Shown here: one piece after another, positions 9,083-32,306 of the stretch | Layout of the letters: every line of letters starts with the position of its first letter | Numbering within the stretch: the stretch's first letter is position 1 | DNA from: Mesorhizobium sp. | GTDB taxonomy: Bacteria; Pseudomonadota; Alphaproteobacteria; Rhizobiales; Rhizobiaceae | Reading direction: 5' to 3' | NCBI GenBank assembly: GCA_004020545.1 | Contig: SAQE01000064.1 | Location: 1-32,306, forward strand | DNA length: 32,306 bases | The notes under the pieces: model-generated | Database searches by the model: none | Told to the model about the DNA's origin: nothing | What the model saw: the letters and a program-made list of their open reading frames with translations, nothing else | Translations under genes and position numbers: made by a program

Positions 9083-9105
9083 GTGGGCTACCTCCCGATT
9101 TCCCC

Positions 9106-17832: not shown

Positions 17833-18285
17833 TTGCTGACGGACACGGCGCTTAAACATCTGAAATCTAAGGCAAAAGATTACAGGATCGCGGACCGTGA
17901 CGGTATGTACGTCCTGGTCAAAAGCTCGGGCGCGCTGACCTTCCGGTACGACTACCGAATGAACGGCCGTCGCGAGACCCGTGACGCTCGGCCAATACGG
18001 GCCTGACGGCATGACACTCGCCAGAGAATTGTGTCTGGATGCGCGTCGCATGGTGGGGGAGGGAATCTCGCCCGCGCAGGAGAGGCAGCGACAGAAGCGC
18101 CGCCTGAAGGAAGCCAAGAGCTTCGGTGAGTTCGGCGAGCGCTGGTTCAAGGAAGCGCGGATGGCCGACAGTACACCTGCCATGCGCCGGGCGACCGGCG
18201 ACTGGCGCAATCCGGCCCAACGCATCGGGATCCGGTTGACCATCGCCTTGCGTATGGCTGTTTCTGTCGACGCAACTATCGTCTA
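17833..18285 (+). pseudogene. Tyrosine integrase (P4-type) N-terminal remnant, frameshifted
   Basis: The first frame reads LLTDTALKHLKSKAKDY, then ADRDGMYVLVKSSG and LTFRYDYRMNGRRET, the DUF4102 arm-binding domain of P4-like integrases. A single-base frameshift near 17980 moves the continuation TLGQYGPDGMTLAREL, then ISPAQERQRQKRRL and FGEFGERWF, to the next frame. The catalytic domain with R-H-R-Y is absent; the frame ends at 18285 after about 150 codons. It marks the left border of the stress-gene block that begins immediately after it. Confidence 0.82.
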
Positions 18286-18903
18286 ATTCCGTTGGCCGTT
18301 CTGCAGCCCGGGCGGTTCCGTAAAGGGCTGGCCAAGGTGAACGGACTGAGGCGGCAGGGCGCCAGAGGTTGAGAAGGGCTCCACTGGCGAAACCTCGCCG
18401 CCCGCGGGCACAGCGCCATCCGGGAACTGCTGTGCGGCCATTTCCTGCGTCCACACGGCGAGGACACTTTGCTGGGTTGCCTCGGCAACGATGCAGTAGC
18501 CTCTGGGGTCGAGGATCGAAAGCACGGCGTGATCGTCGTTTCGCGCCAGGCGGAAGGCGCGGTCGACCACGTCAAGGCAGGCGGCCAATTGCCGGGCGTC
18601 TGCAAGGCGAGTGTTGCGCAGCATGTCGGAAAGTCGGAAAGCCTCGAGGCCCCGCTCGGCGATGTTTGTTCCCTTTCGACCCAGCTCGAAGAAGACGCTG
18701 ACGACAGGGAGCATGCCGCGGATCGAAGCGTAGATTGCCATGGCCTCCTGCGGATTGCAGGCGGCCAGATGCGGCGAGTCAGGCAGACCTGGTTCCGCCG
18801 ACGGAACGAGCCCCAGCGAATGGGCGACCTCATGTTCCAGCCATTGCCGCACTTCCGGCGGAGCGGTTCGGATCTGTTCGGGGCTTAAGGTGATACCGAC
18901 CAT
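18283..18903 (-). CDS. Conserved hypothetical protein (206 residues)
   Basis: I do not recognise a named domain. The N-terminus (ITLSPEQIRTAPPEVRQWLEHEV) looks helical and regulatory-protein-like, and the middle contains two amphipathic helical stretches (LPVVSVFFELGRKG, LADARQLAACLDVVDRAFRLAR). The C-terminal 50 residues are proline/glutamine-rich and probably disordered. No signal peptide or membrane segment. The ATG at 18903 has GGGAG eight bases upstream. A near-perfect FNR-type box lies 64 bases before the start, putting the gene with the downstream stress block. Its 3' end overlaps the integrase remnant by a few bases. Confidence 0.7.
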   Translation of the reverse strand: MVGITLSPEQIRTAPPEVRQWLEHEVAHSLGLVPSAEPGLPDSPHLAACNPQEAMAIYASIRGMLPVVSVFFELGRKGTNIAERGLEAFRLSDMLRNTRLADARQLAACLDVVDRAFRLARNDDHAVLSILDPRGYCIVAEATQQSVLAVWTQEMAAQQFPDGAVPAGGEVSPVEPFSTSGALPPQSVHLGQPFTEPPGLQNGQRN

Positions 18904-18960: not shown

Positions 18961-18974
18961 TTGATCCGTGTCAA
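18961..18974. promoter_or_regulatory. FNR/FixK-type box, 9 of 10
   Basis: TTGATccgtGTCAA differs at one position from TTGAT-N4-ATCAA. Its centre lies 64 bases before the 206-residue gene on the minus strand. Confidence 0.6.
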
Positions 18975-19023
18975 GTCCGGCAGGAGGAGCCCAGCCGAAC
19001 CGGGGGCCACCTGGGTGCTCAGT

Positions 19024-19239
19024 TCACAAAAGCGAGAAATGCGAACCCAGGAAGACGAGGAACTGGCCGGTGATCAGGGGAACTCTCAAGACGGGGCCGG
19101 CCTCTCCGCTGCCCTGGACTGGTTGTCCGCGCACGCACGGATGCGCCTTCAGCACATCCCTCCAGATGGTTGGAAAATCCGATCCCTTGCTTCTTTCGGC
19201 GTTGCACGTATCGACAAGCCTCGCGACGGCTATTCTCAT
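19024..19239 (-). CDS. Small conserved hypothetical protein (71 residues)
   Basis: The protein begins MRIAVARLVDTCNAERSKG, continues with FPTIWRDVLKAHP and ends with a hydrophobic VLRVPLITGQFLVFLG segment. Composition and codon use look like a real gene, and I recall similar short proteins in rhizobial genomes but no function. The ATG at 19239 is preferred over an in-frame TTG three bases earlier; GAGG lies about 12 bases upstream. A perfect FNR-type box is centred 68 bases before the start. Confidence 0.6.
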   Translation of the reverse strand: MRIAVARLVDTCNAERSKGSDFPTIWRDVLKAHPCVRGQPVQGSGEAGPVLRVPLITGQFLVFLGSHFSLL

Positions 19240-19300
19240 CAAGCAGAGTTACCTCAAATGCGTCGTTGCAGGACATATGACTGAATATGACGGGAAGAAT

Positions 19301-19314
19301 TTGATTTCGATCAA
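19301..19314. promoter_or_regulatory. FNR/FixK-type box, perfect
   Basis: TTGATttcgATCAA matches the consensus at all ten positions and is centred 68 bases upstream of the 71-residue gene. Confidence 0.7.
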
Positions 19315-19331
19315 TGCATCGAAAAGAACCC

Positions 19332-19541
19332 TCATAACGGCACCCACGCATTTCCTTCCTTGCGGTAGCGGTGCTTCACCGCGGCCCATGCGACCCGGTG
19401 GGCGATTTCCTCTCGCTTCTGCCCGCGGTCCGCATATTCGTCCCAGGCGTTGTTGAAGGCAGCGCGATAGATTTCCCTCGCATGAAGCGGGAGATATTCG
19501 CTGATTGGCGGCGGAAGGTCCGTGATCGAGGCATATGGCAT
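19332..19541 (-). CDS. chaB: ChaB-family protein
   Basis: This 69-residue protein matches the ChaB fold along its length: MPYASITDLPPPI, LPLHAREIYRAAFNNAWDEY, a charged turn, and EEIAHRVAWAAVKHRYRK. In enterobacteria chaB lies beside the cation antiporter gene chaA and was named a regulator of it, but no antiporter gene is present here, so the role is open. Single-gene ChaB proteins occur in rhizobial stress clusters. The start at 19541 has only a weak ribosome site. A half-conserved FNR box lies 81 bases upstream. Confidence 0.88.
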   Translation of the reverse strand: MPYASITDLPPPISEYLPLHAREIYRAAFNNAWDEYADRGQKREEIAHRVAWAAVKHRYRKEGNAWVPL

Positions 19542-19615
19542 TGTTGCGCTTTCTTATTGAGGGGCCGGTGCGGGTCATCGCTAACGACATCTAAGGACTG
19601 CTGTAAGCGCAAGCT

Positions 19616-19629
19616 TTGATTCCGCGCAA
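19616..19629. promoter_or_regulatory. Degenerate FNR/FixK-type box, 8 of 10
   Basis: TTGATtccgCGCAA keeps the left half and the CAA of the right half. It is centred 81 bases upstream of chaB. Weak on its own; supported by the series of similar sites nearby. Confidence 0.35.
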
Positions 19630-19747
19630 AGACGGACCTAGGCGGCCAGGGCAGTCTGGCGGGTGACGGTCGTCGGCGTTGGGGGTTGGCTGTGGCCCGA
19701 TCCGGGCCTGCTGGCGGCAGTGCGACGATCGGCCGTCACAAGGAAAC

Positions 19748-19784
19748 GGCCGGCGCCTTCATTGGGTGGGGGAAGGCGCCGGCC
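19748..19784. terminator. Perfect 13-bp inverted repeat
   Basis: GGCCGGCGCCTTC (19748-19760) and GAAGGCGCCGGCC (19772-19784) flank an 11-base loop. On the minus strand the stem is followed by GTTTCC, only a weak T-run. It lies about 125 bases past the stop of the 58-residue minus-strand gene and may end that transcript. It could instead be a dispersed extragenic repeat. Confidence 0.5.
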
Positions 19785-19908
19785 TGGCGGAGCGCGCATG
19801 GGTTGGGTAAACGCGCACCGATTTCATTGGGTCTCCCGACCGTGTGAATTCGTAGCTCTGGGGCCGAAGACGGGCCGTTGGCCTGTCAGTCAGTTCGATG
19901 ACGCAGAT

Positions 19909-20085
19909 TCATTTCCCAGCGTCCTCGCGCGGGGTGATTTGCATTCCCAGAGCATTCTCGGCCGTCTGGAAAGACGTTTTCGCTTCGGCCGCATGCGTGG
20001 CGACGATCGTGTCGCCGTTCATCTCCTTCACCCGGCAAGCCTTGACGCCACCCTGACTGGGGCACTCGGAATTGCTGTGTGTCAC
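19909..20085 (-). CDS. Small hypothetical protein (58 residues), coupled to upstream gene
   Basis: A GTG start at 20085 overlaps the stop of the 80-residue gene in the classic GTGA arrangement, and the frame runs 58 codons to TGA at 19911-19909. The product has two cysteines near the start (SECPSQGGVKAC) and a helical VATHAAEAKTSFQTAENALGMQI segment. It has no recognised domain. The overlap and the good codon use are the reasons to call it. Confidence 0.5.
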   Translation of the reverse strand: MTHSNSECPSQGGVKACRVKEMNGDTIVATHAAEAKTSFQTAENALGMQITPREDAGK

Positions 20086-20324
20086 AAGCTTGTTCCGTTA
20101 CGCCATTGACGCCAATGCGTAGGCTGCACCACCACGGGCCTCTCCGTGTCGGAGGCTATCCACCTCGATCCTTCCCGACGGCACGGGAACCTCAAAGCGG
20201 CAACCTTGCCCTCTTCAATTACCGCCAACTGGAGGTCGAGACCGAAAGGCGCACTATCTATTGTTATCCAACTGTTCACTTCGGCCCCACCGATTGAGCA
20301 CTCATCTATCCATGTGGATGACAC
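20082..20324 (-). CDS. Small hypothetical protein (80 residues)
   Basis: The product contains FGLDLQLAVIEEGKVAALRFPCRREGS followed by a basic, tryptophan-rich C-terminus ending WRQWRNGTSL. The beta-strand-like centre suggests a compact globular protein. The GTG at 20324 is the first start in frame; I see no convincing ribosome site, so the true N-terminus is uncertain. No family recognised. It overlaps the 58-residue gene by four bases, so the pair is probably one transcript. Confidence 0.55.
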   Translation of the reverse strand: MSSTWIDECSIGGAEVNSWITIDSAPFGLDLQLAVIEEGKVAALRFPCRREGSRWIASDTERPVVVQPTHWRQWRNGTSL

Positions 20325-20366
20325 GAAAACACTTACATAAGTTGGTATCTCGGCTGCTGCGCTCTG

Positions 20367-20600
20367 ATGGAAGAGAAAGACAAGTTCGCCCGGCTATCGG
20401 AGCTTCTGGACATCCTGGACCAGAACTTCTTCCGGATTGGCGACCCCGCAGTTGAACAGAGGGCCAGAGTTAACCGTCTGCAATCGGATGGCAACGACAC
20501 AGTTCTCGCGCGACGACACCTTGCGAATCTCGAAGACCTCTACGAGCTGTTCCTCCTGACAAGACGAATCGTTTCTAACGATACTGAGCGTCGGGCCTGA
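20367..20600 (+). CDS. Small hypothetical protein (77 residues)
   Basis: A mostly helical, charged protein (MEEKDKFARLSELLDILDQNFF, then two further helices around ARRHLANLEDLYELFLLTRR). The leucine-rich heptad spacing could support a coiled coil or dimer. No signal peptide, no known domain. It is divergent from the 80-residue gene and convergent with the Crp/Fnr gene. Ribosome site weak. Confidence 0.5.
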   Translation: MEEKDKFARLSELLDILDQNFFRIGDPAVEQRARVNRLQSDGNDTVLARRHLANLEDLYELFLLTRRIVSNDTERRA

Positions 20601-20607
20601 TCCAAGA

Positions 20608-20628
20608 CGAAGCTGGACGACAGCTTCG
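20608..20628. terminator. Hairpin between convergent genes
   Basis: CGAAGCTG (20608-20615) and CAGCTTCG (20621-20628) form a perfect 8-bp stem with a 5-base loop, placed between the stop of the plus-strand 77-residue gene and the stop of the minus-strand regulator. No T-tract follows on either strand, so a bidirectional terminator is only likely. Confidence 0.4.
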
Positions 20629-20630
20629 CC

Positions 20631-21380
20631 CTACGCGAACAGGTAGGCCGGATCGAACTCCGCCAGGTCACGAAGCCGCTGCGGCTGCAGGATCTCAAGA
20701 TGGTGCCTGTGAAGCCTGATCAAGCCGTCCCTGCGAAGTTGCTGAAGAACGCGATTCACGTGGACACCGCTCATCCCCGTTGCGTCGGCTATTACTTCGT
20801 GAGTCAACGGCAGATCGAAGGAGTGATCTCCCACCAGTTCGACGCGTCGAAGCCGCGCATGCAACTCACAAAACAGGTGAGCGAGGTGTGTGGCCTTGTC
20901 GTGCCGTCCCATATAGGCAAGCCATATCCGCAACGTTGATTGTTCGATGAGGGCGATGTTGAGAAAGGCGCTGGCAAGCCTGGGATGAGCCACCGTGGCG
21001 GCGGCGAGAGCCGAGCGGTTGAGCAGCGTGACGCTGGCTGACGTGAGCGCGGTCACTCGGCCAACGGAACCGTGCCCCAATGCCGACAAGTCGCAAGGAT
21101 CGCCGACGACAAGGAAGTCCGTTATCTGCCGCGAGCCGTCCTTGAACGAGATCGAGCGCGCGGCCCAACCGTCCGTCATAACGTGAAGATGTGATGGGCA
21201 CTTGTCGGAGTCAAAGATCGTTTCGCCGCGGCCATAGGTCTTGATGCCCGTAACCGTGCTGGCCAGGGCATCTCGGTCCGCGCTGACAAGCGGCGCGCCA
21301 CGCACACGGGTGATCAAAGCGTCCAGCGACAAGGGATATCTCTCTTCGAAGTCACGAAAGCAGCCGGGGACCGGAAGCAT
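20631..21380 (-). CDS. Crp/Fnr-family transcriptional regulator
   Basis: This 249-residue protein has an N-terminal cyclic-nucleotide-binding-type beta-roll (about residues 35-125: KTYGRGETIFDSD, HVMTDGWAARSI, ITDFLVVGDPCDL) and a C-terminal winged helix (about 165-235: LTHEVIADATGMSGVHVNRVLQQLRRDGLI). Cysteines are scattered and do not form the iron-sulfur pattern of Fnr. Aligned to Fnr, the recognition-helix E-SR residues read V, N, R, so TTGAT recognition by this protein is doubtful. The ATG at 21380 is used; an upstream TTG adds three codons. A 9-of-10 FNR-type box sits 44 bases before the start, so another FixK/Fnr may control it. Confidence 0.88.
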   Translation of the reverse strand: MLPVPGCFRDFEERYPLSLDALITRVRGAPLVSADRDALASTVTGIKTYGRGETIFDSDKCPSHLHVMTDGWAARSISFKDGSRQITDFLVVGDPCDLSALGHGSVGRVTALTSASVTLLNRSALAAATVAHPRLASAFLNIALIEQSTLRIWLAYMGRHDKATHLAHLFCELHARLRRVELVGDHSFDLPLTHEVIADATGMSGVHVNRVLQQLRRDGLIRLHRHHLEILQPQRLRDLAEFDPAYLFA

Positions 21381-21417
21381 CGGACACAATCATTGCCACT
21401 GGTCGGGTGAGCGGTAC

Positions 21418-21431
21418 TTGACAGGGATCAA
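21418..21431. promoter_or_regulatory. FNR/FixK-type box, 9 of 10
   Basis: TTGACagggATCAA, one mismatch, is centred 44 bases before the Crp/Fnr gene on the minus strand. Confidence 0.55.
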
Positions 21432-21510
21432 ACTCGTCCTGCCCAGGCGGTCTCTGCTAGCCGAAGCCATCGCCCGTTATTGCGCACTGCGCCCAGTGTT
21501 TCCTGCAATT

Positions 21511-21524
21511 TTGATCTTGGACAA
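21511..21524. promoter_or_regulatory. Degenerate FNR/FixK-type box, 8 of 10
   Basis: TTGATcttgGACAA is centred 71 bases upstream of the lipoprotein gene. Two right-half mismatches, but the distance fits the rest of the series. Confidence 0.4.
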
Positions 21525-21588
21525 AGCGAATGCTCATGCGGGCTGTCAAAAGCACTCCTGTTTATGACTATTCGTCAGGAGCGGACCA

Positions 21589-21792
21589 ATGAAAACTATT
21601 ATCATCGCATCGCTAAGCTTGGTGCTTGCCGGCTGCGTCAATGAAAGTCGTGAGGTCTCCGTCCCAGGTCACGCCTACAAGACCGAACGCGGATGCAAGC
21701 GCCACGAAAGCCCGTCGAAATTCGATCCTAACTGCGATTGCCCCTCGAAGGGTTACAAGGATTTCAAGCAGCCGATACCGTGTCCGCTGTAA
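21589..21792 (+). CDS. Small secreted lipoprotein
   Basis: The 67-residue precursor has a short basic start, a hydrophobic core and the lipobox LAGC with Cys at position 16, so a mature lipoprotein of 52 residues is expected. The mature part holds three more cysteines in a C-x(n)-CDC-type cluster (RGCKRHE, DPNCDCPSKGY, PIPCPL), possibly a disulfide or metal site. The ATG at 21589 has AGGAG eight bases before it. I know no named family. Divergent from the Crp/Fnr gene, with an FNR-type box 71 bases upstream. Confidence 0.72.
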   Translation: MKTIIIASLSLVLAGCVNESREVSVPGHAYKTERGCKRHESPSKFDPNCDCPSKGYKDFKQPIPCPL

Positions 21793-21990
21793 CGAAAGGG
21801 GGGCCTGCAGAATGCATAAATGCGCGGGCTTCCTTGTTTCAGCCACGCTCAATAGATCTGAAGATGGTGCAGGAGGCTTTCTACCACCTTCGCCATCAAA
21901 GTTCTTGCGCTGAGCGGGGGCCTGTGCCCGTCGCGGGGCGCGGCACAGAGGCATGGTGTCTGTGTTGACGCGGATCAAGTCGCGCGCAAG
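21793..21990. other. Spacer without supported gene
   Basis: Nothing recognisable. Short frames here have no motif; a trace resembling the start of the CheB remnant may extend into its last 60 bases. Confidence 0.4.
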
Positions 21991-22123
21991 ACAAGTTTCG
22001 CAACCGGACCGTCGATCTCCTGTTCACGTCGGTCGCCATGCACGCGCGGACCCGCGCTATTGGCGTCGTGCTGCGAGGCGCTTTGAGCGACAGGTCGCGC
22101 GGCCTTGCCGAAATCCACCTAGC
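21991..22123 (+). pseudogene. CheB-type methylesterase remnant
   Basis: The frame reads RTVDLLFTSVAMHARTRAIGVVLRGALSDRSRGLAEIH, corresponding to the VDxLFxSVA and GVVLSGxLxDGxxGLxxI blocks of CheB methylesterase domains. The catalytic GxSxGG region upstream is absent, the key glycines and the aspartate context are altered, and the frame continues into unrelated sequence. It is a scar from an unrelated gene. Confidence 0.6.
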
Positions 22124-22395
22124 GGCGCGCCTAGCAGACACAGCGGCCTCTTGCATCGTCAAACGCGGACGCGCCCAAGATCGACGCAGATTAGTGGCGC
22201 GCCTGGCGCGATGGCGGTGACCTGGACCGACACGGACCAGAGGATGCTCCTTCAGGCAGCCGATCAAACTCCGCAACCTGACAGCGACAGCCGGTTGGTT
22301 TCGATCAGCAGATCGGTTTCTTGCAGCAAGGAAGCGTCCATCGGTCACTCGAATTGAGCCGCGCACCTTGTGTTCGCGACAAACCCTGGCACTCC

Positions 22396-22409
22396 TTGAC
22401 TTCGCTCAA
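22396..22409. promoter_or_regulatory. Degenerate FNR/FixK-type box, 8 of 10
   Basis: TTGACttcgCTCAA is centred 107 bases before the ftsH-like start codon, the longest spacing of the series. Confidence 0.35.
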
Positions 22410-22509
22410 AGTCGGAACGGCGAGCCGCGGATAGGCTCCTAACGCGGCCGAGAAGCACCGACGCCTGCTGACCCGCCACCAGAACAGTACAATTCCGCCG
22501 GAGGCGGGC

Positions 22510-24342
22510 ATGGACAAGAAGCATAGTTTCAACATCGGCTATTTCATCCTCGCGCTGGTCCTGATGGGCCTGTTTCAGGTCTGGCTTGGCTGGCGGGATG
22601 TCGCGCAGCTCTCCTACAGCGACGTCATGCGGCTGGTCGGGGAGGGCAAGGTCGCCTCCGTGACGCTGACTGAAACGACAATCCAGGGCCAGTTCAGGGA
22701 CCCACAGGACGGCAAAAGCGTCTTCGTCGCCGCACGCGTCGATCCGGCATCAGCCGAAGCCTTCGAGAAGGCCGGCGTGAAGGTATCAGGCGGCACCGAC
22801 AGCAATTGGCTGACCACCATCCTGTCATGGATCCTGCCGGCGCTGATCTTCTTCGGCCTCTGGATGTTTCTTTTCCGCGGCTTCGCCGAACGGCAAGGCA
22901 TGGGCGGATTGATCAACATAGGCAAGTCCAAGGCCAAGATCTATGTCGAGAGACAGACCGGCGTGACCTTCGACGACGTCGCCGGCGTCGACGAAGCCAA
23001 ACTCGAGCTCAAGGAAATCGTCTCCTTCCTGAAGGACAAGGACAAATATGGCCGGCTTGGCGCGCGGATCCCCAAGGGCACTCTCCTGGTGGGGCCGCCC
23101 GGCACCGGCAAGACTCTGATGGCGCGCGCGGTGGCGGGCGAGGCGGGCGTACCCTTCTTCTCGATCTCGGGTTCCGAGTTCGTCGAGATGTTCGTCGGTG
23201 TGGGCGCGGCACGCGTTCGAGATCTTTTCGAGCAGGCAAGGCAGGCCGCGCCATGCATCATCTTCATCGACGAGCTGGACGCGCTCGGGCGAGCACGCAG
23301 CCCTTTCGCGGGCTACGGTGGGGCTGACGAGAAGGAGCAGACGCTCAACCAGCTCCTGTCGGAGCTGGACGGGTTCGATCCTCGCATTGGCATCGTGCTT
23401 CTTGCCGCCACCAATCGGCCGGAAATCCTTGATCCGGCGCTTACCCGCGCGGGGCGCTTCGATCGCCAGGTGGTGATCGACAGGCCTGACCGGAAGGGAC
23501 GCGAGGCCATCCTCAAGGTCCATGTTCGCAGCGTTGCGGTGGCGCCCAGCGTGGACATCGGCGAGGTGGCAGGCATCACGCCGGGGTTCACCGGCGCGGA
23601 CCTCGCCAATCTCGTCAACGAGGCCGCGATCTTCGCCACCCGGCGCAACGCCGACAAGGTGACGATGGATGACTTCACCAACGCTGTGGAGCGTATCGTC
23701 GCCGGTTCCGAGCGCAAGAGCAGGCTGCTTAATCCGGCGGAGCGTGAGAGGGTCGCCTATCACGAAATGGGGCATGCGCTTGCCGCGGCTGCGCTTGTCA
23801 AAACAGATCCCGTGCACAAGGTGTCGATCATCCCGCGCTCGATCGGCGCGCTCGGCTACACCATGCAGCGCCCGACCGACGACCGGTTCCTGATCACCCA
23901 AGGGGAATTGAGGGAGCGGATGATCGCCCTTCTGGCAGGCCGGGCGGCGGAGGATATCGTCTATGGCGAGGTCTCGACCGGGGCAGCCGACGATCTGGCC
24001 AAAGCAACGGATGTGGCACGCCAGAGCGTCACGCGGTTCGGCATGAGCCCTTCCGTGGGACAGGCCGTCCTCGAGGAACAGAAGCAGCAATGGCTGGGAG
24101 ACGGGTCGCTGAACAAGCGCGACTATTCCGAGGCCACTGCCCGTGAAGTCGATCTCGCAGTTCGCCAGATGCTGGACGATGCCTACGCGGCGGCGCAGGA
24201 TCTGCTCAGATCCCGGATAGCCGACCTCAAGGCAGGCGCCAGTCTGCTTCTCAAACATGAGACCATCACCCCTGACGATTTCCCGCCGCTGCGGCGCGCC
24301 ACGCCGATTGTGGCCGCGACCGGAAAGACGGTGTCGGCGTGA
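22510..24342 (+). CDS. ftsH: Accessory ATP-dependent zinc metalloprotease FtsH
   Basis: This 610-residue membrane AAA protease has two transmembrane segments (about 9-27 and 103-123) around a small periplasmic domain. The AAA module has Walker A GPPGTGKT (195-202), pore motif FVG (228-230), Walker [10 protein letters not shown] (250-258) and a second region of homology with [11 protein letters not shown] and RAGRFDR. The peptidase site is YHEMGHAL (418-422 being the HEXXH) with a later zinc aspartate in [12 protein letters not shown]. Usual housekeeping FtsH reads HEAGH; the Met variant and shorter length suggest a specialised paralogue. It stands alone downstream of a weak FNR-type box and degrades damaged or unassembled membrane proteins in known homologues. 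Confidence 0.93.
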
Positions 24343-24390
24343 CATATCACCTGACCCGCCGGCGGGCGGTGGGCGCAATCCCCTTGGCAT

Positions 24391-24404
24391 TTGATCACGA
24401 TCAA
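24391..24404. promoter_or_regulatory. FNR/FixK-type box, perfect
   Basis: TTGATcacgATCAA is a perfect match centred 80 bases before the BON-domain gene, which heads the BON-XRE-prs operon. Confidence 0.72.
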
Positions 24405-24477
24405 CGTCGTCGCGTGAAACAGGAGTCAGAGTTTTTCATCAAGCAAAGCGGTGTCCCTGAAACGGCGAGGTGGAAAA

Positions 24478-25128
24478 ATGAGTGACAGCACATTGAGGCA
24501 AGACATCATCGATGAGCTGGATTTCGAGCCCAGCATCGATGCCGCTGACATTGGCGTGGCCGTCGACAATGGTGTTGTGACGCTGAGCGGTCACGTCCCG
24601 ACCTATGCTCAGAAGGTCAAGGTCGAGGAGGTCGTGCGAAGCGTCAAGGGCGTCAAGGCCATCGCGCAGGAGATGGAAGTGCGTCCCTTCGGCACCCACA
24701 AGACCGCCGATGACGAGATCGCCAAGCGCGCCGTCAATACGATCGGCTGGAACACGTCGATCCCAAGTGGCGCGGTGCAGATCCAAGTGCAGGACGGTTG
24801 GGTCAAGCTCACCGGCAAGGTCGAATGGCAATACCAGAAGACCGCGGCGGAAGGCGCCGTGCGTCACCTCGCCGGCGTCGTGGGCGTCAGCAACCACGTC
24901 GAGATCAAGCCGAAGCCGTCGACCTGCGATATCAAGAAGCGGATCGAGGATGCGCTGAAGCGAAACGCGGAGCTCGAGGCGCAGGAGATCAAGGTCAACG
25001 TCCTCGACAATGGCGCGGTGAGGCTCGAAGGTCGGGTGCATGCCTGGTCGGAACGCAGGGCCGCCGAGCGCGCCGCCTGGTCGGCCGCCGGCGTCAGGAC
25101 GGTCGAAGACCGGATCACCATCGGCTGA
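24478..25128 (+). CDS. BON-domain protein with three repeats
   Basis: This 216-residue protein consists of three BON modules (about residues 4-70, 79-145 and 149-216), each with the VxDGxVxLxGxV strand and the closing GVxxVxxxI strand. No signal peptide is present, so it is cytoplasmic, unlike OsmY. BON domains are thought to bind membranes or surfaces; triple cytoplasmic versions are common in rhizobial stress clusters. The start at 24478 has GAGGTGG upstream; an extension to 24451 is not needed. It leads an operon with the XRE-like gene (28 bases on) and the PRPP synthetase gene. Confidence 0.88.
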   Translation: MSDSTLRQDIIDELDFEPSIDAADIGVAVDNGVVTLSGHVPTYAQKVKVEEVVRSVKGVKAIAQEMEVRPFGTHKTADDEIAKRAVNTIGWNTSIPSGAVQIQVQDGWVKLTGKVEWQYQKTAAEGAVRHLAGVVGVSNHVEIKPKPSTCDIKKRIEDALKRNAELEAQEIKVNVLDNGAVRLEGRVHAWSERRAAERAAWSAAGVRTVEDRITIG

Positions 25129-25156
25129 CTGCCCGCCGGATAAGGTAGCGTCGACC

Positions 25157-25462
25157 ATGCCGATAACACCTCAACAGTGCCAGACCGGGCGAGCGCTGGC
25201 GAAAATCGACCGCGAAGAACTGGCGGCCGAAGTCGGCGGACTTCCGGATGTGATTGAAGCATACGAGACAGGGCTCGCCATCCTCGATGGCGAGCTCGCG
25301 AAGTTGGTTCAACATTCTCTCGAGAACCTTGGCGTGGAGTTCCTTCCCGAGGAGGATGGCTTTGGCGTGGGCGTCCGGCTCAAAGTCGATCGCGCCGGGA
25401 CCAGGCAAATCGGCAGTTGGGAAGCGGAAGGCGGGCGCGTCGCGGAAGATGACGTCCCGTGA
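25157..25462 (+). CDS. Short XRE-like helix-turn-helix protein
   Basis: This 101-residue protein begins ITPQQCQTGRALAKIDREELAAEVGGLPDVIEAYETG, the pattern of the small XRE-type repressors found in rhizobia, and continues SLENLGVEFLPEEDGFGVGVRLK, their usual short C-terminal tail. Some recognition-helix positions are unusual (GGLPDVIEAYE), so DNA binding may be weak or altered. It sits between the BON and PRPP synthetase genes in one transcript. It may regulate this operon or act as a stress adaptor; that is inference. Confidence 0.7.
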   Translation: MPITPQQCQTGRALAKIDREELAAEVGGLPDVIEAYETGLAILDGELAKLVQHSLENLGVEFLPEEDGFGVGVRLKVDRAGTRQIGSWEAEGGRVAEDDVP

Positions 25463-25483
25463 CGTGGCATCGGAGAGATAGAT

Positions 25484-26461
25484 ATGCGCTTGTTTGCCTT
25501 GAGGGAAACCGGTCAGTTGGGTCAGGACGTCGCGCGAGTTCTGGGAATTGAACTCGATCCCCACGAGGAGCGCGATTTCGAGGATGGCGAGCACAAGGCG
25601 AGACCTCTCGTAAGCGTTCGCGGCGAGGACGTGTACGTTGTCCATAGCCTCGCAGGTGGGCTTGGGTCGTCCCCCAACGACAAGCTTCTCAAGCTTCTCT
25701 TCTTCATTGCGACGTGTCGTGAAAACGGCGCCGCGCGAGTCACGGCAATCGCGCCCTATCTTGCCTATGCGCGTAAGGAACGACAGACCAAAGCGCGTGA
25801 CCCCGTGAGCACGCGCTATGTGGCGCAGCTTTTCGAGGCCGTCGGCACCGACTGCCTGGTCACGCTCGACGTCCACAATTTCGCGGCATTTCAAAACGCC
25901 TTCCGCTGTCGAACGCTCCATCTCGATTCGGGTGCCCTCCTTCAGCCCATGGTGCGCGAACTGGCCGGTGCCGAGCCCATTGTGGTGTTCTCTCCCGACG
26001 GCGGAGGCGTGAAGCGCGCACAGTTGGCTAAGGAAAGGTGCGAGGCGGCAATGGCCAATGAAGTGGGATTCGGTTTCATGGAGAAGCGGCGGAGCCGAGG
26101 GGTCGTCTCAGGAGATCTGTTTGCAGGCGATGTGGACGGAAAGGTTGTCTTCCTCATCGACGATATGATCAGCACCGGCGGCACGATGCTGAGGGCCGCG
26201 CGCGCCTGCCGGGAACGCGGCGCAAAGCAAGTTTACGCCATAGCCACACACGGTCTGTTCAGCAAAGGGGCGGAAGCCCTGTTCACGGACCCGGCCATCG
26301 GGCGCATCGTCGTCACGGACAGCGTGGCGTCGGCGTCGAAGGAGGGAGCCGGCCGCAAAGCCAAACTGCAGGTTTTATCGGCCGCACCGCTGATCGCCGA
26401 GGCGATCAAGCGCCTGCACGGGAACGGCTCAACGTCCGAACTGGTGGGGATACAAGGCTGA
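25484..26461 (+). CDS. prs: Ribose-phosphate pyrophosphokinase (PRPP synthetase) paralogue
   Basis: This 325-residue enzyme makes PRPP from ribose 5-phosphate and ATP. Visible blocks are APYLAYARKERQTKARDPVST (ATP-binding region), TLDVHNFAAFQNAF, the flexible loop EKRRSRGVVSGDL, and the PRPP-binding loop VVFLIDDMISTGGTM. It differs from housekeeping Prs at several of these (for example DMISTGG for DMIDTAG) and is slightly longer, so it is a divergent paralogue. It is the third gene of the BON operon. The 3' end overlaps the convergent kinase gene by 56 bases. A phosphoribosyltransferase remnant at the right edge of the window would consume its product. Confidence 0.9.
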   Translation: MRLFALRETGQLGQDVARVLGIELDPHEERDFEDGEHKARPLVSVRGEDVYVVHSLAGGLGSSPNDKLLKLLFFIATCRENGAARVTAIAPYLAYARKERQTKARDPVSTRYVAQLFEAVGTDCLVTLDVHNFAAFQNAFRCRTLHLDSGALLQPMVRELAGAEPIVVFSPDGGGVKRAQLAKERCEAAMANEVGFGFMEKRRSRGVVSGDLFAGDVDGKVVFLIDDMISTGGTMLRAARACRERGAKQVYAIATHGLFSKGAEALFTDPAIGRIVVTDSVASASKEGAGRKAKLQVLSAAPLIAEAIKRLHGNGSTSELVGIQG

Positions 26462-27446
26462 GTTCGCCCTCCGCGGCGGCGATGTAGGAGCGCGCCAGGC
26501 GCGGCCACCTTTCGGATTCACGCACAACCGGATCCAGCAGATGCGCCAGACAAAGCCGCGCCCGAAGCAACATCCGGAACGCACCGTAGAAAGCCAGGAC
26601 TTCATCGTCGGGCCGACCGCCAAGACGCGCCATAAGCGAATCGAGCAAAACCGGACGGACCCAGCGCGCGCCAAGCATAGCGCATTCCAGGCCCAGATAG
26701 TTGATCTCGTCATAGGGATCGATGATCCGCAGGGACCGATCGAATTCGAGGCAGTCTATGACCTGCATCGGCGTGCCGATGTGCACGTGCTCTGGCCGCA
26801 GGTCGCCATGTCCCTCGACAATGCGGGCCGCCTTGATGCGAGCCTTGATGCTCGGGATTAGCTGCGTAAAGCGTATGTCGGCGACGTCAAGTACGGGCAG
26901 GGCGGCATCCGAGACACCGAGCATCGGCTGACCCAGGATGGCTCGATTGACGGCCTGCTCCCTGATGAGACTTTCGAGGTAAAGATTGCCGTCGTCGACC
27001 TCCGGCCGGGAGCCTGAGTAGAAGCCGGCCATCAGCTTGCCCACATTGCGAATGTCTCCCTCGGTCACAACGCCTTCGCGGAGCCTGACATCCAGCGAGT
27101 CGGCTCGAGGCAGCCGTTTCATCTCGACCAGAAAGTCGACTGCACGTCCTCGTCCCGAAAGGTTGAGGCTTCCGTCCTTGGTGCATCGCAGCGGGATAAC
27201 GGAACAATAGGTATCGGCCGCAAGCCGCCTGTTCAGCCGCAGTTCCTCCTCGCAGAAGAACCGGCGCCGGCCGAGCGTGCTGAAGTCGAGGAAAGGATAT
27301 CGGACCGGCTTCTTCAGCTTGTAGGCCCGGTCCTCGGTCAGAAAGACCCAGGACATGTGTGTTTCCCGAGCCTCAACAAAGGATGCGGCATGAGGATACG
27401 ACCCTGCATCGCTCAGGAAGCGTACCTTTGCCGCCAGATCGATCAT
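26406..27446 (-). CDS. Aminoglycoside-phosphotransferase-like kinase (COG2187 N-terminal type)
   Basis: This 346-residue protein has the APH/protein-kinase-like fold: AYKLKKPV (ATP-anchoring lysine), the catalytic loop VEGHGDLRPEHVH, and the metal-binding block IDCLEFDRSLR followed by DPYDEINYL. It matches the N-terminal half of two-domain kinase/AAA proteins but lacks the ATP-binding second half. The substrate is unknown. The ATG at 27446 has AAGGG eight bases upstream. The gene is divergent from the helix-hairpin-helix gene with a shared perfect FNR-type box between them, and its end overlaps prs. Confidence 0.85.
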   Translation of the reverse strand: MIDLAAKVRFLSDAGSYPHAASFVEARETHMSWVFLTEDRAYKLKKPVRYPFLDFSTLGRRRFFCEEELRLNRRLAADTYCSVIPLRCTKDGSLNLSGRGRAVDFLVEMKRLPRADSLDVRLREGVVTEGDIRNVGKLMAGFYSGSRPEVDDGNLYLESLIREQAVNRAILGQPMLGVSDAALPVLDVADIRFTQLIPSIKARIKAARIVEGHGDLRPEHVHIGTPMQVIDCLEFDRSLRIIDPYDEINYLGLECAMLGARWVRPVLLDSLMARLGGRPDDEVLAFYGAFRMLLRARLCLAHLLDPVVRESERWPRLARSYIAAAEGELSLVSPPVRTLSRSRAGA

Positions 27447-27512
27447 CGACAATCACCCTTGCAATCACTCACGCAATACATCGAACAGATCGACCAAACA
27501 GCGCAGCGCGCC

Positions 27513-27526
27513 TTGATGCGTATCAA
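27513..27526. promoter_or_regulatory. FNR/FixK-type box, perfect, in a divergent promoter region
   Basis: TTGATgcgtATCAA lies midway in the 141-base divergent region, 68 bases from the rightward start and about 73 from the leftward start, so it could drive both genes. Confidence 0.7.
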
Positions 27527-27587
27527 CGAATCCGGCGCTTGTTCGCGTATTGTGCCCTGTCGGACCGATCCGACGAGGTGCTTCAGG

Positions 27588-28505
27588 ATGGCCATTCAGA
27601 CCGGCATTAAGACTGACCCCGCAACGACTATCGTTTCCCAAAGCCTGCCGGCCATCAATTTGCTGATCGCAGGCAGGCTGCGTGACTACGCCGATCTCTT
27701 GACCCAGCAAGGCGAGGATGGATTTCGAGCCAGAGCCTTTCAGCGTGCGGCGGCTATGATCTCGGCGCTCGATCGCCCGGTCGATCAGATTCTCGCGCAG
27801 GAGGGCCGCGAGGGATTGATCGCGCTGCCCGCCGTCGGAACGGGTATCGCCAGCGCGATTGCCGAGATGGTCACCACCGGGCGCTGGTCGCAAATGGACA
27901 GGCTGCGGGGAGACCTTGCGCCGGAGGTTCTGTTCCGGAGCATCCCAGGCATCGGCGCGAAGTTGGCCGACCGCCTTGCCAAGGATGGCCAGATCGAGAG
28001 CCTGGAGGAGCTCGAACAAGCCGTTCGGTTCGGCAAGGTTGCTGTAAGGGGCATCGGGCCGCGACGCCGGCGGATGATCGCCGCAGCCATTGCGGAACGC
28101 CTCGGACGGCCGATTTTCGTTTCCGAGACCGCGGTCGCTCGCCCGCCTGTCGCTATGCTTCTGCAGGTGGACCGGATGTATCGCGAGCGCGCGGCCGCGG
28201 GGCAATTGCGCAAGATAGCGCCGAAGCGTTTCAATCCCACCGGCGATGCCTGGCTACCCATTCTGCATGCCCGTCATGGCGACTGGCATTTCACCGCTCT
28301 GTTTTCAAACACACAGCTCGCGCACCAACTCGGCAAAACGTCCGACTGGGTCGTCATCTACTATCACAAGGACGGCCAGCTTGACGGCCGGTGCACAGTA
28401 GTCACGGTCACGCGCGGGCCATCGCTCGGGCAGCGCGTCGTCCGCGGACGAGAGAGCATTGAGGACGAAAAGGAGATATCGGATGAAACACGGAATCGGA
28501 AGTGA
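27588..28505 (+). CDS. PolX-like helix-hairpin-helix DNA-binding protein without polymerase domain
   Basis: This 305-residue protein starts with the helical 8-kDa-like domain of family X polymerases (DYADLLTQQGEDGFRARAFQ) and three helix-hairpin-helix motifs (LPAVGTGIASAI about 80-91, IPGIGAKLADRL about 119-130, VRGIGPRRRRMI about 153-164). The polymerase palm and PHP domain are absent. The C-terminal domain (RKIAPKRFNP, TALFSNTQLAHQLG, DWVVIYYHKDG) is a separate conserved module of unknown role. The protein probably binds structured or damaged DNA. The start at 27588 has GAGG nine bases upstream. Its end overlaps the next gene by 23 bases. Confidence 0.85.
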   Translation: MAIQTGIKTDPATTIVSQSLPAINLLIAGRLRDYADLLTQQGEDGFRARAFQRAAAMISALDRPVDQILAQEGREGLIALPAVGTGIASAIAEMVTTGRWSQMDRLRGDLAPEVLFRSIPGIGAKLADRLAKDGQIESLEELEQAVRFGKVAVRGIGPRRRRMIAAAIAERLGRPIFVSETAVARPPVAMLLQVDRMYRERAAAGQLRKIAPKRFNPTGDAWLPILHARHGDWHFTALFSNTQLAHQLGKTSDWVVIYYHKDGQLDGRCTVVTVTRGPSLGQRVVRGRESIEDEKEISDETRNRK

Positions 28506-28908
28506 CGATGCCGAGACGCCTGAGCTGACAGTTCCCGTCCGAAAAGTCTGCTTCATAGTCGCCAAGGCCCGTGAGTTCGACGTCAAGGTTGCCGTCACCG
28601 AGCCGGACGCGGGATCCAATCCCACGGACGACAATGAGATTGCGGTGCTTCAGGACCATGATGACGATCCTGTGCGTGAAGAGCTTGGTTCGCTGATCTC
28701 GGAGCTCTCTATCGACGAGCAGATCGACCTCGTGGCGTTGATGTGGCTCGGCCGGGATGACGGTGAGGCGGCCGATTGGGAGGAGGTCCGCCAGCAGGCC
28801 GCCTACGCTCACAACAAACACACGGCCGGCTATCTCTGCGGCAACCCGCTTCTCGGCGATCACCTCGAGGCGGGCCTTGACGCTATTGGTCTGTCCTGTG
28901 GCGACTAG
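28483..28908 (+). CDS. DUF3775 domain protein
   Basis: This 141-residue acidic protein matches DUF3775: an N-terminal VRKVCFIVAKAREFDVK helix, a run of acidic residues, then ELSIDEQIDLVALMWLGRDDG and a C-terminal TAGYLCGNPLLGDHLEAGLDAIG block. The family is found in alphaproteobacteria and has no known function. The ATG at 28483 has GGAG seven bases upstream, and the gene overlaps the preceding one, so both are co-translated. Confidence 0.85.
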   Translation: MKHGIGSDDAETPELTVPVRKVCFIVAKAREFDVKVAVTEPDAGSNPTDDNEIAVLQDHDDDPVREELGSLISELSIDEQIDLVALMWLGRDDGEAADWEEVRQQAAYAHNKHTAGYLCGNPLLGDHLEAGLDAIGLSCGD

Positions 28909-28932
28909 CATGCAGCGCCGCCGATCCGCCCA

Positions 28933-28946
28933 TTGACCAGGATCAA
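28933..28946. promoter_or_regulatory. FNR/FixK-type box, 9 of 10
   Basis: TTGACcaggATCAA, one mismatch, is centred 71 bases before the 84-residue gene. Confidence 0.6.
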
Positions 28947-29010
28947 AGCTCTTCCAGCGAGTTGCCCTTATGGGTTGTGGCGACGCGGTCCGGGTGGCGA
29001 AGGGGGATTC

Positions 29011-29265
29011 GTGGAACTCACATATCGGGCAGTACAAGAACGGCTTCGCGCCGTGGGAGTCGTCATGAGCAAGAGAGGCGATGTCGTGCGCATCAACTTC
29101 TTCGGCGGGCTGGAAGACACCGCTTCCTATTTCACGAGCCTGCGAGAGGCTCTGGACATGGGGCTGCAAATGGGCAATCGGGCGAACTCCGGTCTGTCGC
29201 CGACGAAGTGGGTCCAGTCCAACACTTCTGAAGTGAAGCGATATCGGCCTCGCCAGAGACCTTGA
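29011..29265 (+). CDS. Small conserved hypothetical protein (84 residues)
   Basis: The product reads ELTYRAVQERLRAVG, VVRINFFGGLEDTASYFTSL and EALDMGLQMGNR, a short alpha-beta fold, then a basic tail. I do not know a named family. The GTG at 29011 is chosen because AAGGGGG lies six bases before it. An ATG at 29065 is an alternative and an earlier start at 28933 would overlap the FNR-type box. The stop codon overlaps the next FNR-type box, which serves the following gene. Confidence 0.65.
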   Translation: MELTYRAVQERLRAVGVVMSKRGDVVRINFFGGLEDTASYFTSLREALDMGLQMGNRANSGLSPTKWVQSNTSEVKRYRPRQRP

Positions 29266-29275
29266 TGTATATCAA
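29262..29275. promoter_or_regulatory. FNR/FixK-type box, perfect
   Basis: TTGATgtatATCAA is centred 60 bases before the universal stress protein gene and overlaps the TGA stop of the 84-residue gene. Confidence 0.75.
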
Positions 29276-29328: not shown

Positions 29329-30156
29329 ATGATCTACACGACAATACTGGTCCAGCTCGACATTGATGCGCCGGCAACGCCTCGCCTGATTTTCGCGCAG
29401 GAGATCGCGAGGAAATTCGAGGCGGATCTTATCGCCGTGACAGCGGGCGAGGCTTCCGCGTTGATGTCACCTAGCGAATCCTCGCTGGCTGCGGCTGAGG
29501 TTTTGCGTCAGCGAACCCTTGAGCTCGAGGATCGTATCAAGGCCCTAAAGGAGGAATTCCTCGCTGTCCTTGGCAACAACGAGCGTGCCTCTTGGCGCGC
29601 CGAACTTGGCGATCCCACGCGCGCTGTCGCGCTGCACGCGCGAGCGGCCGATCTGGTGATCACCGGCGCGCCCTTTGCCGCCACCGCCGGAGACTTCCAG
29701 AGGACTGTCGATCCGGGAGCGCTGATCCTTTCCGCAGGGAGGCCGGTTCTGTTTGCGGCCAACGACCTCCGCGCCTTCAAAGGTGAAAGGGTCATGGTGG
29801 CCTGGAAGGATTGTCGCGAGTCGCGACGAGCGGTGGTCGATGCGATGCCTTTCTTGCGCAATGCAAAGGAGGTGACCGTTTTCAGCGCTGCCGAACAAGG
29901 GAAGGCCGCTGCGCGAGATGGCGCGGCGGACGTGGTGCGGTTCCTGATGAAGCACGGTGTGAAGGCGACATCCCAAGTAATGGAAGGCGACGGACTGTCG
30001 GCGGGCGAGTCTATCACCGTCGAGGCCGATCACATCGGAGCCGATCTCATTGTGGCCGGTGGCTACGGGCACAGCCGGTTCCGCGAATGGGCGTTCGGGG
30101 GCGCGACCCGATCAATCCTCCATGCGGGGTCGTTCCATAGGTTGCTTTCGAACTGA
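29329..30156 (+). CDS. Tandem universal stress protein (UspA family)
   Basis: This 275-residue protein holds two Usp domains. The C-terminal one has the ATP-binding GGYGHSRFREWAFGGATRSIL motif; the N-terminal copy (TILVQLDIDAPA, then TGAPFAATAGDF) is degenerate. Universal stress proteins are cytosolic and are often induced by low oxygen, in keeping with the perfect FNR-type box upstream. The start at 29329 has GGAG seven bases before it. Confidence 0.9.
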   Translation: MIYTTILVQLDIDAPATPRLIFAQEIARKFEADLIAVTAGEASALMSPSESSLAAAEVLRQRTLELEDRIKALKEEFLAVLGNNERASWRAELGDPTRAVALHARAADLVITGAPFAATAGDFQRTVDPGALILSAGRPVLFAANDLRAFKGERVMVAWKDCRESRRAVVDAMPFLRNAKEVTVFSAAEQGKAAARDGAADVVRFLMKHGVKATSQVMEGDGLSAGESITVEADHIGADLIVAGGYGHSRFREWAFGGATRSILHAGSFHRLLSN

Positions 30157-31884: not shown

Positions 31885-32066
31885 AACCTGCAGATGACAC
31901 CAGCCGGATCGCACGCTGCTCGGCATGGCGCTCGAAGTGCTCTGCCACCCGATGCTGGCACGTCTAGCGGGCGGGAGGTCGTCATTGTCTATCTGCTGCT
32001 TGGGGATACGTAGAAGGCCCTGATCTAACTCGTCTTGCCTTCCTATTTCTCGGCACCGGCTTGTTG
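31885..32066. other. Convergent intergenic spacer
   Basis: Between two convergent genes. No gene and no clear hairpin with a T-tract were found. Confidence 0.4.
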
Positions 32067-32306
32067 TCATGACCTGTTTGCAGCGTGCGCGGCGGACCGC
32101 CTTCTGCCGTTGGCGTTACGGCGTGCCTGAGCAGCGAGAGCCATGATGTCGAGGACCTCACTATCGGAGAGCTGCGGGAAGTTGACGTAGTAATAGCTGA
32201 GCGCGGGGAAGCGGGCAGGCTGACTGAGACAGATGAGCAAATCCGCTTCTTGCGCAAGTTCGGCTGCGGTGTCCGCGGGCGCCACTGGAATTGCGACGAC
32301 GATTTG
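32067..32306 (-). CDS. Phosphoribosyltransferase, C-terminal part, runs off the window
   Basis: Only the last 79 residues are present; the start lies beyond the right edge. The visible part reads QIVVAIPVAPADTAAEL, then DLLICLSQPARF and SYYYVNFPQLSDSEVLDIM, matching the end of the phosphoribosyltransferase proteins whose VAVPVAPPxT and WYxxFxQVSDEEV blocks are conserved. The PRPP-binding loop would be upstream, outside the window. It pairs logically with the prs paralogue. Confidence 0.72.
   Translation of the reverse strand, partial: QIVVAIPVAPADTAAELAQEADLLICLSQPARFPALSYYYVNFPQLSDSEVLDIMALAAQARRNANGRRRSAAHAANRS

What the first reader, a model, noticed from the sequence alone, without database searches (positions are those of the whole stretch)
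18961..29275. Ten FixK/FNR-type boxes punctuate a 10-kb stress island
Seen: TTGAT-N4-ATCAA-type sites at 18961, 19301, 19616, 21418, 21511, 22396, 24391, 27513, 28933 and 29262; four are perfect (19301, 24391, 27513, 29262). Each precedes a gene or divergent pair by 44-107 bases, mostly 60-80. A perfect ten-base match is expected about 0.01 times in 12 kb of random sequence. None was noticed before the other genes of the window. Established: this is the binding motif of Fnr/FixK in rhizobia. Inference: the block is a coherent low-oxygen regulon, including several genes of unknown function.
Basis: partly seen in the sequence, partly recalled or inferred. Interest (0 to 1): 0.82.

Follow-up and report, generated by a model that had tools for sequence, protein, structure and literature searches.

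The report
Low-oxygen survival gene island
A cluster of stress and unknown genes in a soil bacterium of the Mesorhizobium group carries, in front of most of its transcription units, the docking site of a low-oxygen activator, and relatives keep these sites, so the cluster is very likely a low-oxygen survival programme of a known general kind that includes some uncharacterised proteins.

Summary
All ten listed strings are present. Eight strong TTGAY-N4-RTCAA sites lie in 18961-29275 and none elsewhere in the window, against 0.12 expected by shuffling and 0.12 by genome density. Corrections: 19616 scores as background; 21965 was missed and sits beside a broken cheB fragment; 21511 and 22396 are weak but conserved. 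A -10-like element peaks where class II FNR activation puts it, in 56 own-genome sites. The genome encodes at least three FnrN-like and one FixK-like regulator; the island's own Crp/Fnr protein looks like a target. This is a member of a known kind (FixK/FnrN regulons; Burkholderia lxa locus). Newer pieces: a conserved uncharacterised 71-aa protein, and a Pol-X-like protein with no polymerase match that has the box in Mesorhizobium, Burkholderia and one Sulfitobacter. No expression data were available for this strain.

The parts
18961..18974 (-). FixK/FNR box TTGACACGGATCAA (read on -), upstream of UnkA
   Evidence: matrix 18.9; box at 61-65 bp before the start in 12 of 12 relatives
18283..18903 (-). 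UnkA, 206 aa, no Pfam or NCBIfam match
19301..19314 (-). FixK/FNR box (perfect) for the 71-aa protein, 3' of chaB
   Evidence: same place in relatives
19027..19239 (-). conserved 71-aa protein (start 19239); dN/dS 0.07-0.20 against four relatives and the own-genome paralogue
   Evidence: no Pfam match; model pLDDT 91.5
19332..19541 (-). ChaB family protein
   Evidence: PF06150 E 6e-20
   Evidence: matrix 4.2
20631..21389 (-). Crp/Fnr-family regulator, recognition helix VHVNR, no CxxC cysteines; start codon uncertain
   Evidence: 4 of 146 genus genomes, own included
21418..21431 (-). FixK/FNR box before the Crp/Fnr gene
   Evidence: matrix 18.3; strong box 22-70 bp before the extrapolated start in 3 of 3 relatives
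21511..21524 (+). weak box before the small lipoprotein gene
   Evidence: matrix 12.7; identical in L001 and L005, absent in L077
21589..21792 (+). putative 67-aa lipoprotein
   Evidence: no Pfam match; orthologues in L001, L005
   Evidence: matrix 20.4
21990..22214 (+). cheB methylesterase fragment (profile 94-148 of 174)
   Evidence: PF01339 E 5.8e-7
22396..22409 (+). weak box before ftsH
   Evidence: matrix 11.1; same weak form in L067 and near ftsH in L089 (10.4)
22510..24342 (+). FtsH membrane protease
   Evidence: TIGR01241 742 bits, cut-off 600
24391..24404 (+). FixK/FNR box (perfect) before the BON operon
   Evidence: matrix 21.0; BON orthologues 8 of 9
24478..25128 (+). protein with three BON domains
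   Evidence: PF04972 E 1.4e-47, three stretches
25157..25462 (+). 101-aa protein, no family above a cut-off
25484..26461 (+). ribose-phosphate pyrophosphokinase, third gene after box 24391; box of its own in 9 of 12 relatives
   Evidence: TIGR01251 252 bits, cut-off 113
26406..27446 (-). APH-like protein (HGDLRPEH motif; family name recalled), 346 aa, no Pfam match
   Evidence: box in 12 of 12 relatives
27513..27526 (.). FixK/FNR box (perfect) shared by the divergent APH-like and HHH genes
   Evidence: matrix 20.0; a box in the same place in L001, L002, L005, L067
27588..28505 (+). HHH protein: Pol-X-like N-terminal half without a polymerase match
   Evidence: PF14716 E 2.3e-16; PolX over residues 41-184
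28483..28908 (+). DUF3775 protein, co-transcribed with HHH (inferred)
   Evidence: PF12616 E 1e-27
28933..28946 (+). FixK/FNR box after DUF3775
   Evidence: matrix 19.8
29065..29265 (+). 66-aa ORF between the two boxes; reality uncertain
   Evidence: no Pfam match; no hit in the 18 loci
29262..29275 (+). FixK/FNR box (perfect) before usp
   Evidence: matrix 20.9; Usp family 18 of 19
29329..30156 (+). universal stress protein
   Evidence: PF00582 33.7 bits, cut-off 24
30274..31884 (+). MBL/beta-CASP hydrolase, no box of its own, possibly downstream of usp
   Evidence: PF10996 and PF07521; no box in 2 of 2 relatives

Best explanation
The stretch 18.3-31.9 kb is a low-oxygen survival island. Under microoxia an Fnr/FixK-type dimer (one of the FnrN-like proteins or the FixK-like protein encoded on other contigs) binds TTGAY-N4-RTCAA boxes centred about 41.5 bp before the transcription start and activates RNA polymerase as a class II activator. 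About nine transcription units are switched on together: UnkA, the 71-aa protein, the Crp/Fnr-family regulator, the lipoprotein, ftsH (both of these last from weak boxes), BON-101aa-prs, APH-like, HHH-DUF3775 and usp(-MBL). The products most likely preserve membrane and protein quality (FtsH, BON, Usp), the PRPP pool and DNA while growth is halted; the Crp/Fnr protein may relay the signal to a second tier. Shown here: the boxes, their enrichment, their conservation with the genes, and the -10 spacing. Inferred: which regulator acts, induction by low oxygen, operon structure, and the physiological role.
For: Enrichment: 8 strong sites against 0.12 expected by shuffles of the window and 0.12 by genome density over the block. 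Conservation outside the window, matrix score 15 or more within 160 bp: HHH 15 of 15, APH-like 12 of 12, Usp family (paralogues included) 18 of 19, BON 8 of 9, FtsH 7 of 8, PRPP synthetase 9 of 12; shuffles of the same upstream stretches reach 15 in at most 0.2%. UnkA 12 of 12 at 61-65 bp, 71-aa protein 23 of 23 loci at 66-73 bp. Boxes persist though gene order is shuffled. A -10-like hexamer peaks at +29 from the box centre: first of 55 offsets, z 4.9, in 56 own-genome sites read both ways, and above 200 shuffles in 90 box-gene pairs that are not independent. Other box-associated genes in the genome include GroEL, a radical-SAM protein read by eye as HemN, an S30AE hibernation-type factor and an ABC protein read by eye as CydD. 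Regulators: FnrL/FnrN-like on C117, C44, C33 with CxxC...C and E-T-V-S-R, FixK-like on C117. In print: a R. leguminosarum anaerobox gene is induced about 50-fold in microaerobiosis, FnrN-dependently (PMC11784457, abstract and passages); B. diazoefficiens PRPP synthetase, an MBL hydrolase and several Usp proteins are induced in microoxia (PMC6515984, passages).
Against: No expression or binding data for this strain. ChaB (0 of 5, 2 of 7 relatives have a strong and 3 an intermediate box), DUF3775 (0 of 12), the MBL gene (0 of 2) and the 101-aa gene (0 of 2) have no box of their own, so their membership rests on co-transcription. In the closest relatives ftsH has only weak or distant boxes (scores 10.4-15.0 in L067, L111, L112, L113, L114). 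Eight of the nine PRPP-synthetase boxes lie 40 bp from the start codon, too close for class II unless the message is leaderless; they may serve the divergent HHH gene. Of 48 sites elsewhere in the genome, 19 fall inside an ORF of a crude ORF call, so not every box-like site marks a promoter. A fixed box plus TANNNT pattern finds 5 places genome-wide and none in the window. In B. diazoefficiens the PRPP synthetase and its MBL neighbour are not marked in the column I take to be FixK2 targets. Outside Mesorhizobium the HHH gene often lacks a box: 1 of 13 genome-contig loci has a strong one and 5 of 8 named-record loci. The window copy is eroded in places, so some boxes may drive nothing.
Confidence: 0.86

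Rival explanations
1. The boxes are read by an NO- or nitrite-responsive Crp/Fnr regulator (NnrR/DNR type), which uses a similar palindrome, so the island answers denitrification intermediates rather than oxygen itself.
For: The genome has 15 places with HTH_Crp_2 above cut-off, of which only five were classified here; a relative of the 71-aa gene lies beside nnrS and nitrate reductase genes with a box on a Mesorhizobium plasmid.
Against: Three FnrN-like and one FixK-like regulators with the E-T-V-S-R helix are present, and box-associated genes include chaperone, hibernation and (by eye) haem genes. That NnrR and FixK sites resemble each other is recalled.
Confidence: 0.08
2. The Crp/Fnr protein encoded inside the island (20631-21389) is its own local activator and reads the boxes.
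For: It lies inside the island and a strong box stands in front of its gene here and in 3 of 3 relatives.
Against: Its recognition helix reads VHVNR, not the E-T-V-S-R of the FnrN/FixK-like proteins, and it lacks the N-terminal CxxC cysteines. Only 4 of 146 genus genomes, own included, hold it at E 1e-40, while relatives without it (for example G013, G086, G090) keep boxes before the same genes.
Confidence: 0.04
3. The boxes are relics or chance palindromes in a decaying genomic island with no present regulatory role.
For: A broken integrase at 17833-18286, missing ABC/Nramp genes and a cheB fragment show erosion; 19616 and perhaps 21965 fit this view.
Against: Conserved boxes, spacing and -10 position next to intact genes.
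Confidence: 0.02

Closest known systems
FixK/FnrN (anaerobox) regulons of rhizobia
   Same: TTGAT-N4-ATCAA boxes (PMC7888657, passage; PMC11784457, abstract and passages), class II spacing, FnrN- and FixK-like genes in the genome, Usp and chaperone-type targets.
   Different: The targets named in the passages seen are mainly respiration, haem and hydrogenase genes; here the island is stress, PRPP, Pol-X-like and unknown genes. No nitrogen-fixation gene was identified in the 10-kb block.
[quoted passage not shown]
   Same: Contiguous low-oxygen island with six Usp proteins, a BON protein and a metallo-beta-lactamase-fold protein, tied to persistence at low oxygen, with an Anr/FixK-type regulator suggested (PMC6127331, passages).
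   Different: Larger (50 genes), another class of bacteria, other metabolic genes. Gene-by-gene orthology was not tested here.
Usp-Hsp20-GroEL-glucokinase-PRPP synthetase plasmid islands of Sinorhizobium fredii pSF45436d, Ensifer adhaerens pCTYH.Ch1_2 and R. leguminosarum pRL22b4
   Same: APH-like gene convergent with prs in all three, as in the window; HHH, DUF3775 and ChaB in Ensifer; BON and FtsH in R. leguminosarum; FixK/FNR boxes before several units.
   Different: Carry Hsp20, GroEL and glucokinase that are not in this window; neither the 71-aa protein (only a Mesorhizobium plasmid matches) nor UnkA (no match in the plasmid collection).

Membership tests
FixK/FnrN (anaerobox) regulon | TTGAY-N4-RTCAA boxes above chance | tested here: met
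FixK/FnrN (anaerobox) regulon | boxes conserved upstream of orthologues | tested here: met
   exceptions ChaB, DUF3775, MBL, 101-aa gene, and only weak boxes for ftsH in close relatives
FixK/FnrN (anaerobox) regulon | class II promoter spacing, box centre near -41.5 | tested here: met
   as an average: -10-like peak at +29 from the centre; single window promoters match only loosely and start sites are not mapped
FixK/FnrN (anaerobox) regulon | FixK or FnrN encoded in the genome | tested here: met
   FnrL or FixK models are best hits, below NCBIfam's equivalog cut-offs; cysteine and helix motifs read by eye
FixK/FnrN (anaerobox) regulon | low-oxygen induction lost in regulator mutants | not testable with these tools
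   needs mutants and RNA-seq
FixK/FnrN proper (for the local protein 20631-21389) | E-T-V-S-R-type recognition helix | tested here: not met
   VHVNR in the translation; that these residues set the specificity is recalled
lxa locus of Burkholderia | gene-for-gene orthology with BCAM0275-BCAM0323 | not tested
   only gene types compared,
DNA polymerase X (for HHH 27588-28505) | N-terminal lyase/HHH region | tested here: met
   residues 41-184 align to PolX 20-156
DNA polymerase X (for HHH 27588-28505) | nucleotidyltransferase (polymerase) domain | tested here: inconclusive
   no polymerase Pfam domain; in the 60 of 71 rows shown no best stretch goes beyond residue 184; the structure was not predicted

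The most novel reading that the evidence does not exclude
The island defines a conserved low-oxygen dormancy module with new protein families: a 71-aa folded protein that has a FixK/FNR box 66-73 bp upstream in all 23 related loci examined, and a polymerase-less Pol X relative under FNR control from rhizobia to Burkholderia, together acting on DNA or nucleotide maintenance in non-growing microoxic cells and bacteroids.
Probability: 0.25. Interest if true: 0.62.

Novelty: new member of a known kind. Interest (0 to 1): 0.45.

Why it matters
It turns a set of unknown rhizobial genes into a testable regulon: the boxed genes come with a predicted start site and activator. The Pol-X-like protein and the 71-aa protein are candidates for how microoxic, non-growing cells keep DNA and proteins intact, which bears on bacteroid survival in legume nodules and on the related Burkholderia low-oxygen response (two 'DNA polymerase family X' genes and FtsH are listed as raised in micro-oxia in strain H111, PMC3759415, passages; whether either is the HHH orthologue was not established).

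Tried and rejected

Limits: the matrix came from 48 of the 73 TTGAY-N4-RTCAA sites outside the window. In one search one spurious 27% BON row was dropped and the window's own rows were left out. The 23 loci of the 71-aa gene are 6 and 17; left out are the rows that are the window itself (L082, L086, L100) and L071, which holds only the C-terminal part. They include the paralogue on contig C33 (L105), whose box was among the matrix sites, and more than one locus from two genomes. Further copies with a box in L116 and L122 are not in the 23. The 12 UnkA relatives count the split gene of G117 (L096, L099) once; a fragment in L068 with a box is not counted. Regulators: of the 15 places above cut-off my motif script showed proteins for five (L037, L038, L041, L042, L043); the window's own was read; the others are unclassified. 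HHH records: 12; 8 were read, Ensifer (there HHH follows DUF3775, with a box 112 bp before DUF3775), 3 not read.
Full report
What the window is. The window is a whole 32,306-bp contig (C149) of a 6.99-Mb genome in 188 contigs. The closest loci are titled Mesorhizobium sp. (L001, L005) and their match places agree with genomes of the window's own genus (G086, G090), so the host is taken to be Mesorhizobium; this is inference.

Check of the observation. All ten strings exist. Four perfect palindromes stand against none in 100 shuffles; eight TTGAY-N4-RTCAA sites in the window stand against 0.12. In the genome there are 27 perfect sites with a reversed-pattern control of 0 and 81 relaxed sites with a control of 7. 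The 10.3-kb block holds 8 of the 81; the expectation from length is 0.12. A matrix from 48 other sites in the genome separates eight strong sites (18.3-21.0), two intermediate ones (21511, 22396) and the background (7.5 or less), where 19616 falls. Four other contig stretches are also dense: 9 sites on C33 (2-14.3 kb), 15 on C140, 6 on C100 (1.5-22.9 kb), 5 on C117 (2.9-18.9 kb), so with this window 43 of the 81 sites sit in five clusters. Of the 48 sites looked at outside the window, 19 fall inside an ORF of a crude ORF call, so a box-like site alone does not prove a promoter.

What the boxes belong to. Gene content comes from Pfam and NCBIfam scans and translation: UnkA (no family), a 71-aa protein, ChaB, a Crp/Fnr-family regulator, a small putative lipoprotein, FtsH, a triple-BON protein, a 101-aa protein, ribose-phosphate pyrophosphokinase, an APH-like protein, an HHH protein related to the N-terminal half of DNA polymerase X, DUF3775, Usp and an MBL/beta-CASP hydrolase. 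The box at 19301 lies 3' of chaB; the ORF it faces is the 71-aa frame at 19027-19239 (-). That frame is conserved in related genomes with dN/dS 0.07-0.20 between the window copy and four relatives plus the own-genome paralogue, and it gives a confident model (mean pLDDT 91.5).

Conservation test. Of 146 genus genomes (own included), 36 have a match to the HHH protein at E 1e-10; the weak ones are about 30% identical and mostly lie in long frames of PolX size, and the clear relatives (over 60% identity, best E 6e-65 or better) number 16 besides the window's genome. Loci were taken for 15 of these (the other, G018, is split at contig ends). Gene order is shuffled among them, but boxes stay with genes. 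In the 160 bp before each orthologue, a score of 15 or more is reached by HHH 15 of 15, APH-like 12 of 12, Usp family with paralogues 18 of 19, BON 8 of 9, FtsH 7 of 8, PRPP synthetase 9 of 12, UnkA 2 of 2, 71-aa protein 6 of 6, but ChaB 0 of 5, DUF3775 0 of 12, MBL 0 of 2, the 101-aa gene 0 of 2 and the lipoprotein 0 of 3 (2 of 3 at 10 or more); shuffles reach 15 in at most 0.2%. A wider set gives UnkA 12 of 12 relatives at 61-65 bp and, with the six above, 71-aa protein 23 of 23 loci at 66-73 bp, down to about 35% protein identity and into other genera of the family. The two weak sites are conserved as weak sites: 21511 is identical in L001 and L005, 22396 has the same CTCAA half in L067. 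Against the simple picture: in the closest relatives ftsH has only weak or more distant boxes (10.4-15.0), and eight of the nine PRPP-synthetase boxes are 40 bp from the start codon, which suits the divergent HHH gene better.

Promoter geometry. Aligned on the box, a TATAAT-like hexamer peaks with its first base 29 nt after the box centre. In 56 own-genome sites read both ways this offset ranks first of 55, z 4.9; in 90 box-gene pairs of the window and relatives, which are not independent, its mean score is 2.26 against a maximum of 1.73 in 200 shuffles. With a -10 element at -12 to -7 this puts the box centre at -41.5, the class II position. Individual window promoters match the hexamer only loosely, and a fixed box plus TANNNT pattern finds none of them.

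Who reads the boxes. The genome has at least three FnrN-like proteins (C117, C44, C33) with CxxC...C cysteines and the E-T-V-S-R helix and one FixK-like protein (C117) without the cysteines; most of the other Crp-family places were not classified. FnrN and FixK are said to recognise very similar sites, with no group-specific changes in the DNA-contacting residues (PMC4999443, passages). The island's own Crp/Fnr protein has VHVNR and no such cysteines, occurs in 4 of 146 genomes, and is itself preceded by a box in 3 of 3 relatives; it is best read as a target.

Beyond the genus. S. fredii, Ensifer adhaerens and R. leguminosarum plasmids carry overlapping gene sets with boxes before several units. 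The HHH homologue has a strong box 62-101 bp before a possible start in 3 of 4 Burkholderia loci and in Sulfitobacter SK012; in the fourth, B. stagnalis, the box is there but its distance depends on the start codon. Cupriavidus KK10, Rhizobium WYJ-E13 and Gemmatirosa have none near the start, and only 1 of 13 genome-contig loci outside the genus set has a strong one (Devosia, L015; a second Sulfitobacter, L012, has none). Published Burkholderia data list FtsH, Usp proteins and two 'DNA polymerase family X' genes as raised in micro-oxia (PMC3759415, passages).

Erosion of this copy. Some relatives hold ABC-transporter and Nramp genes between ftsH and chaB (L109, L113, L114). Here that stretch holds other genes and a short piece that reads by eye as fragments of the two, beside a cheB fragment. 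A split integrase N-terminus lies to the left.

Verdict. The island is a new member of a known kind; its interest lies in the conserved unknown genes it ties to low oxygen. Confidence was lowered by 0.01 on re-reading because of the ftsH and prs exceptions.

Noticed in passing
17833-18286: N-terminus of a phage-type integrase (Arm-DNA-bind_3) split between two frames, just left of the island: a broken integrase.
   Followed up: partly
21890-22366: Apparent deletion scar where some relatives have ABC-transporter and Nramp genes, plus a cheB fragment.
   Followed up: partly
30274-31884: MBL/beta-CASP protein whose best NCBIfam hits, below cut-off, are type VII CRISPR Cas14 and archaeal aCPSF1; a relative lies beside a usp-like gene in L076.
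   Followed up: no
L018 (contig C33) 12868-13080: Second copy of the 71-aa gene (79% identical) with its own box, beside a usp gene.
   Followed up: partly
L122 9001-9198: A 71-aa relative near nnrS and nitrate reductase genes on a Mesorhizobium sp. B2-1-8 plasmid, with a box upstream.
   Followed up: partly
L023 4295-4849: Ribosome-hibernation-type S30AE protein fused to a cold-shock domain, behind FixK/FNR boxes.
   Followed up: no
32066-32306: The contig ends inside a gene read by eye as a phosphoribosyltransferase-like C-terminus.
   Followed up: no
8189-9115: Intradiol (catechol-type) dioxygenase in the left, box-free half of the window.
   Followed up: no
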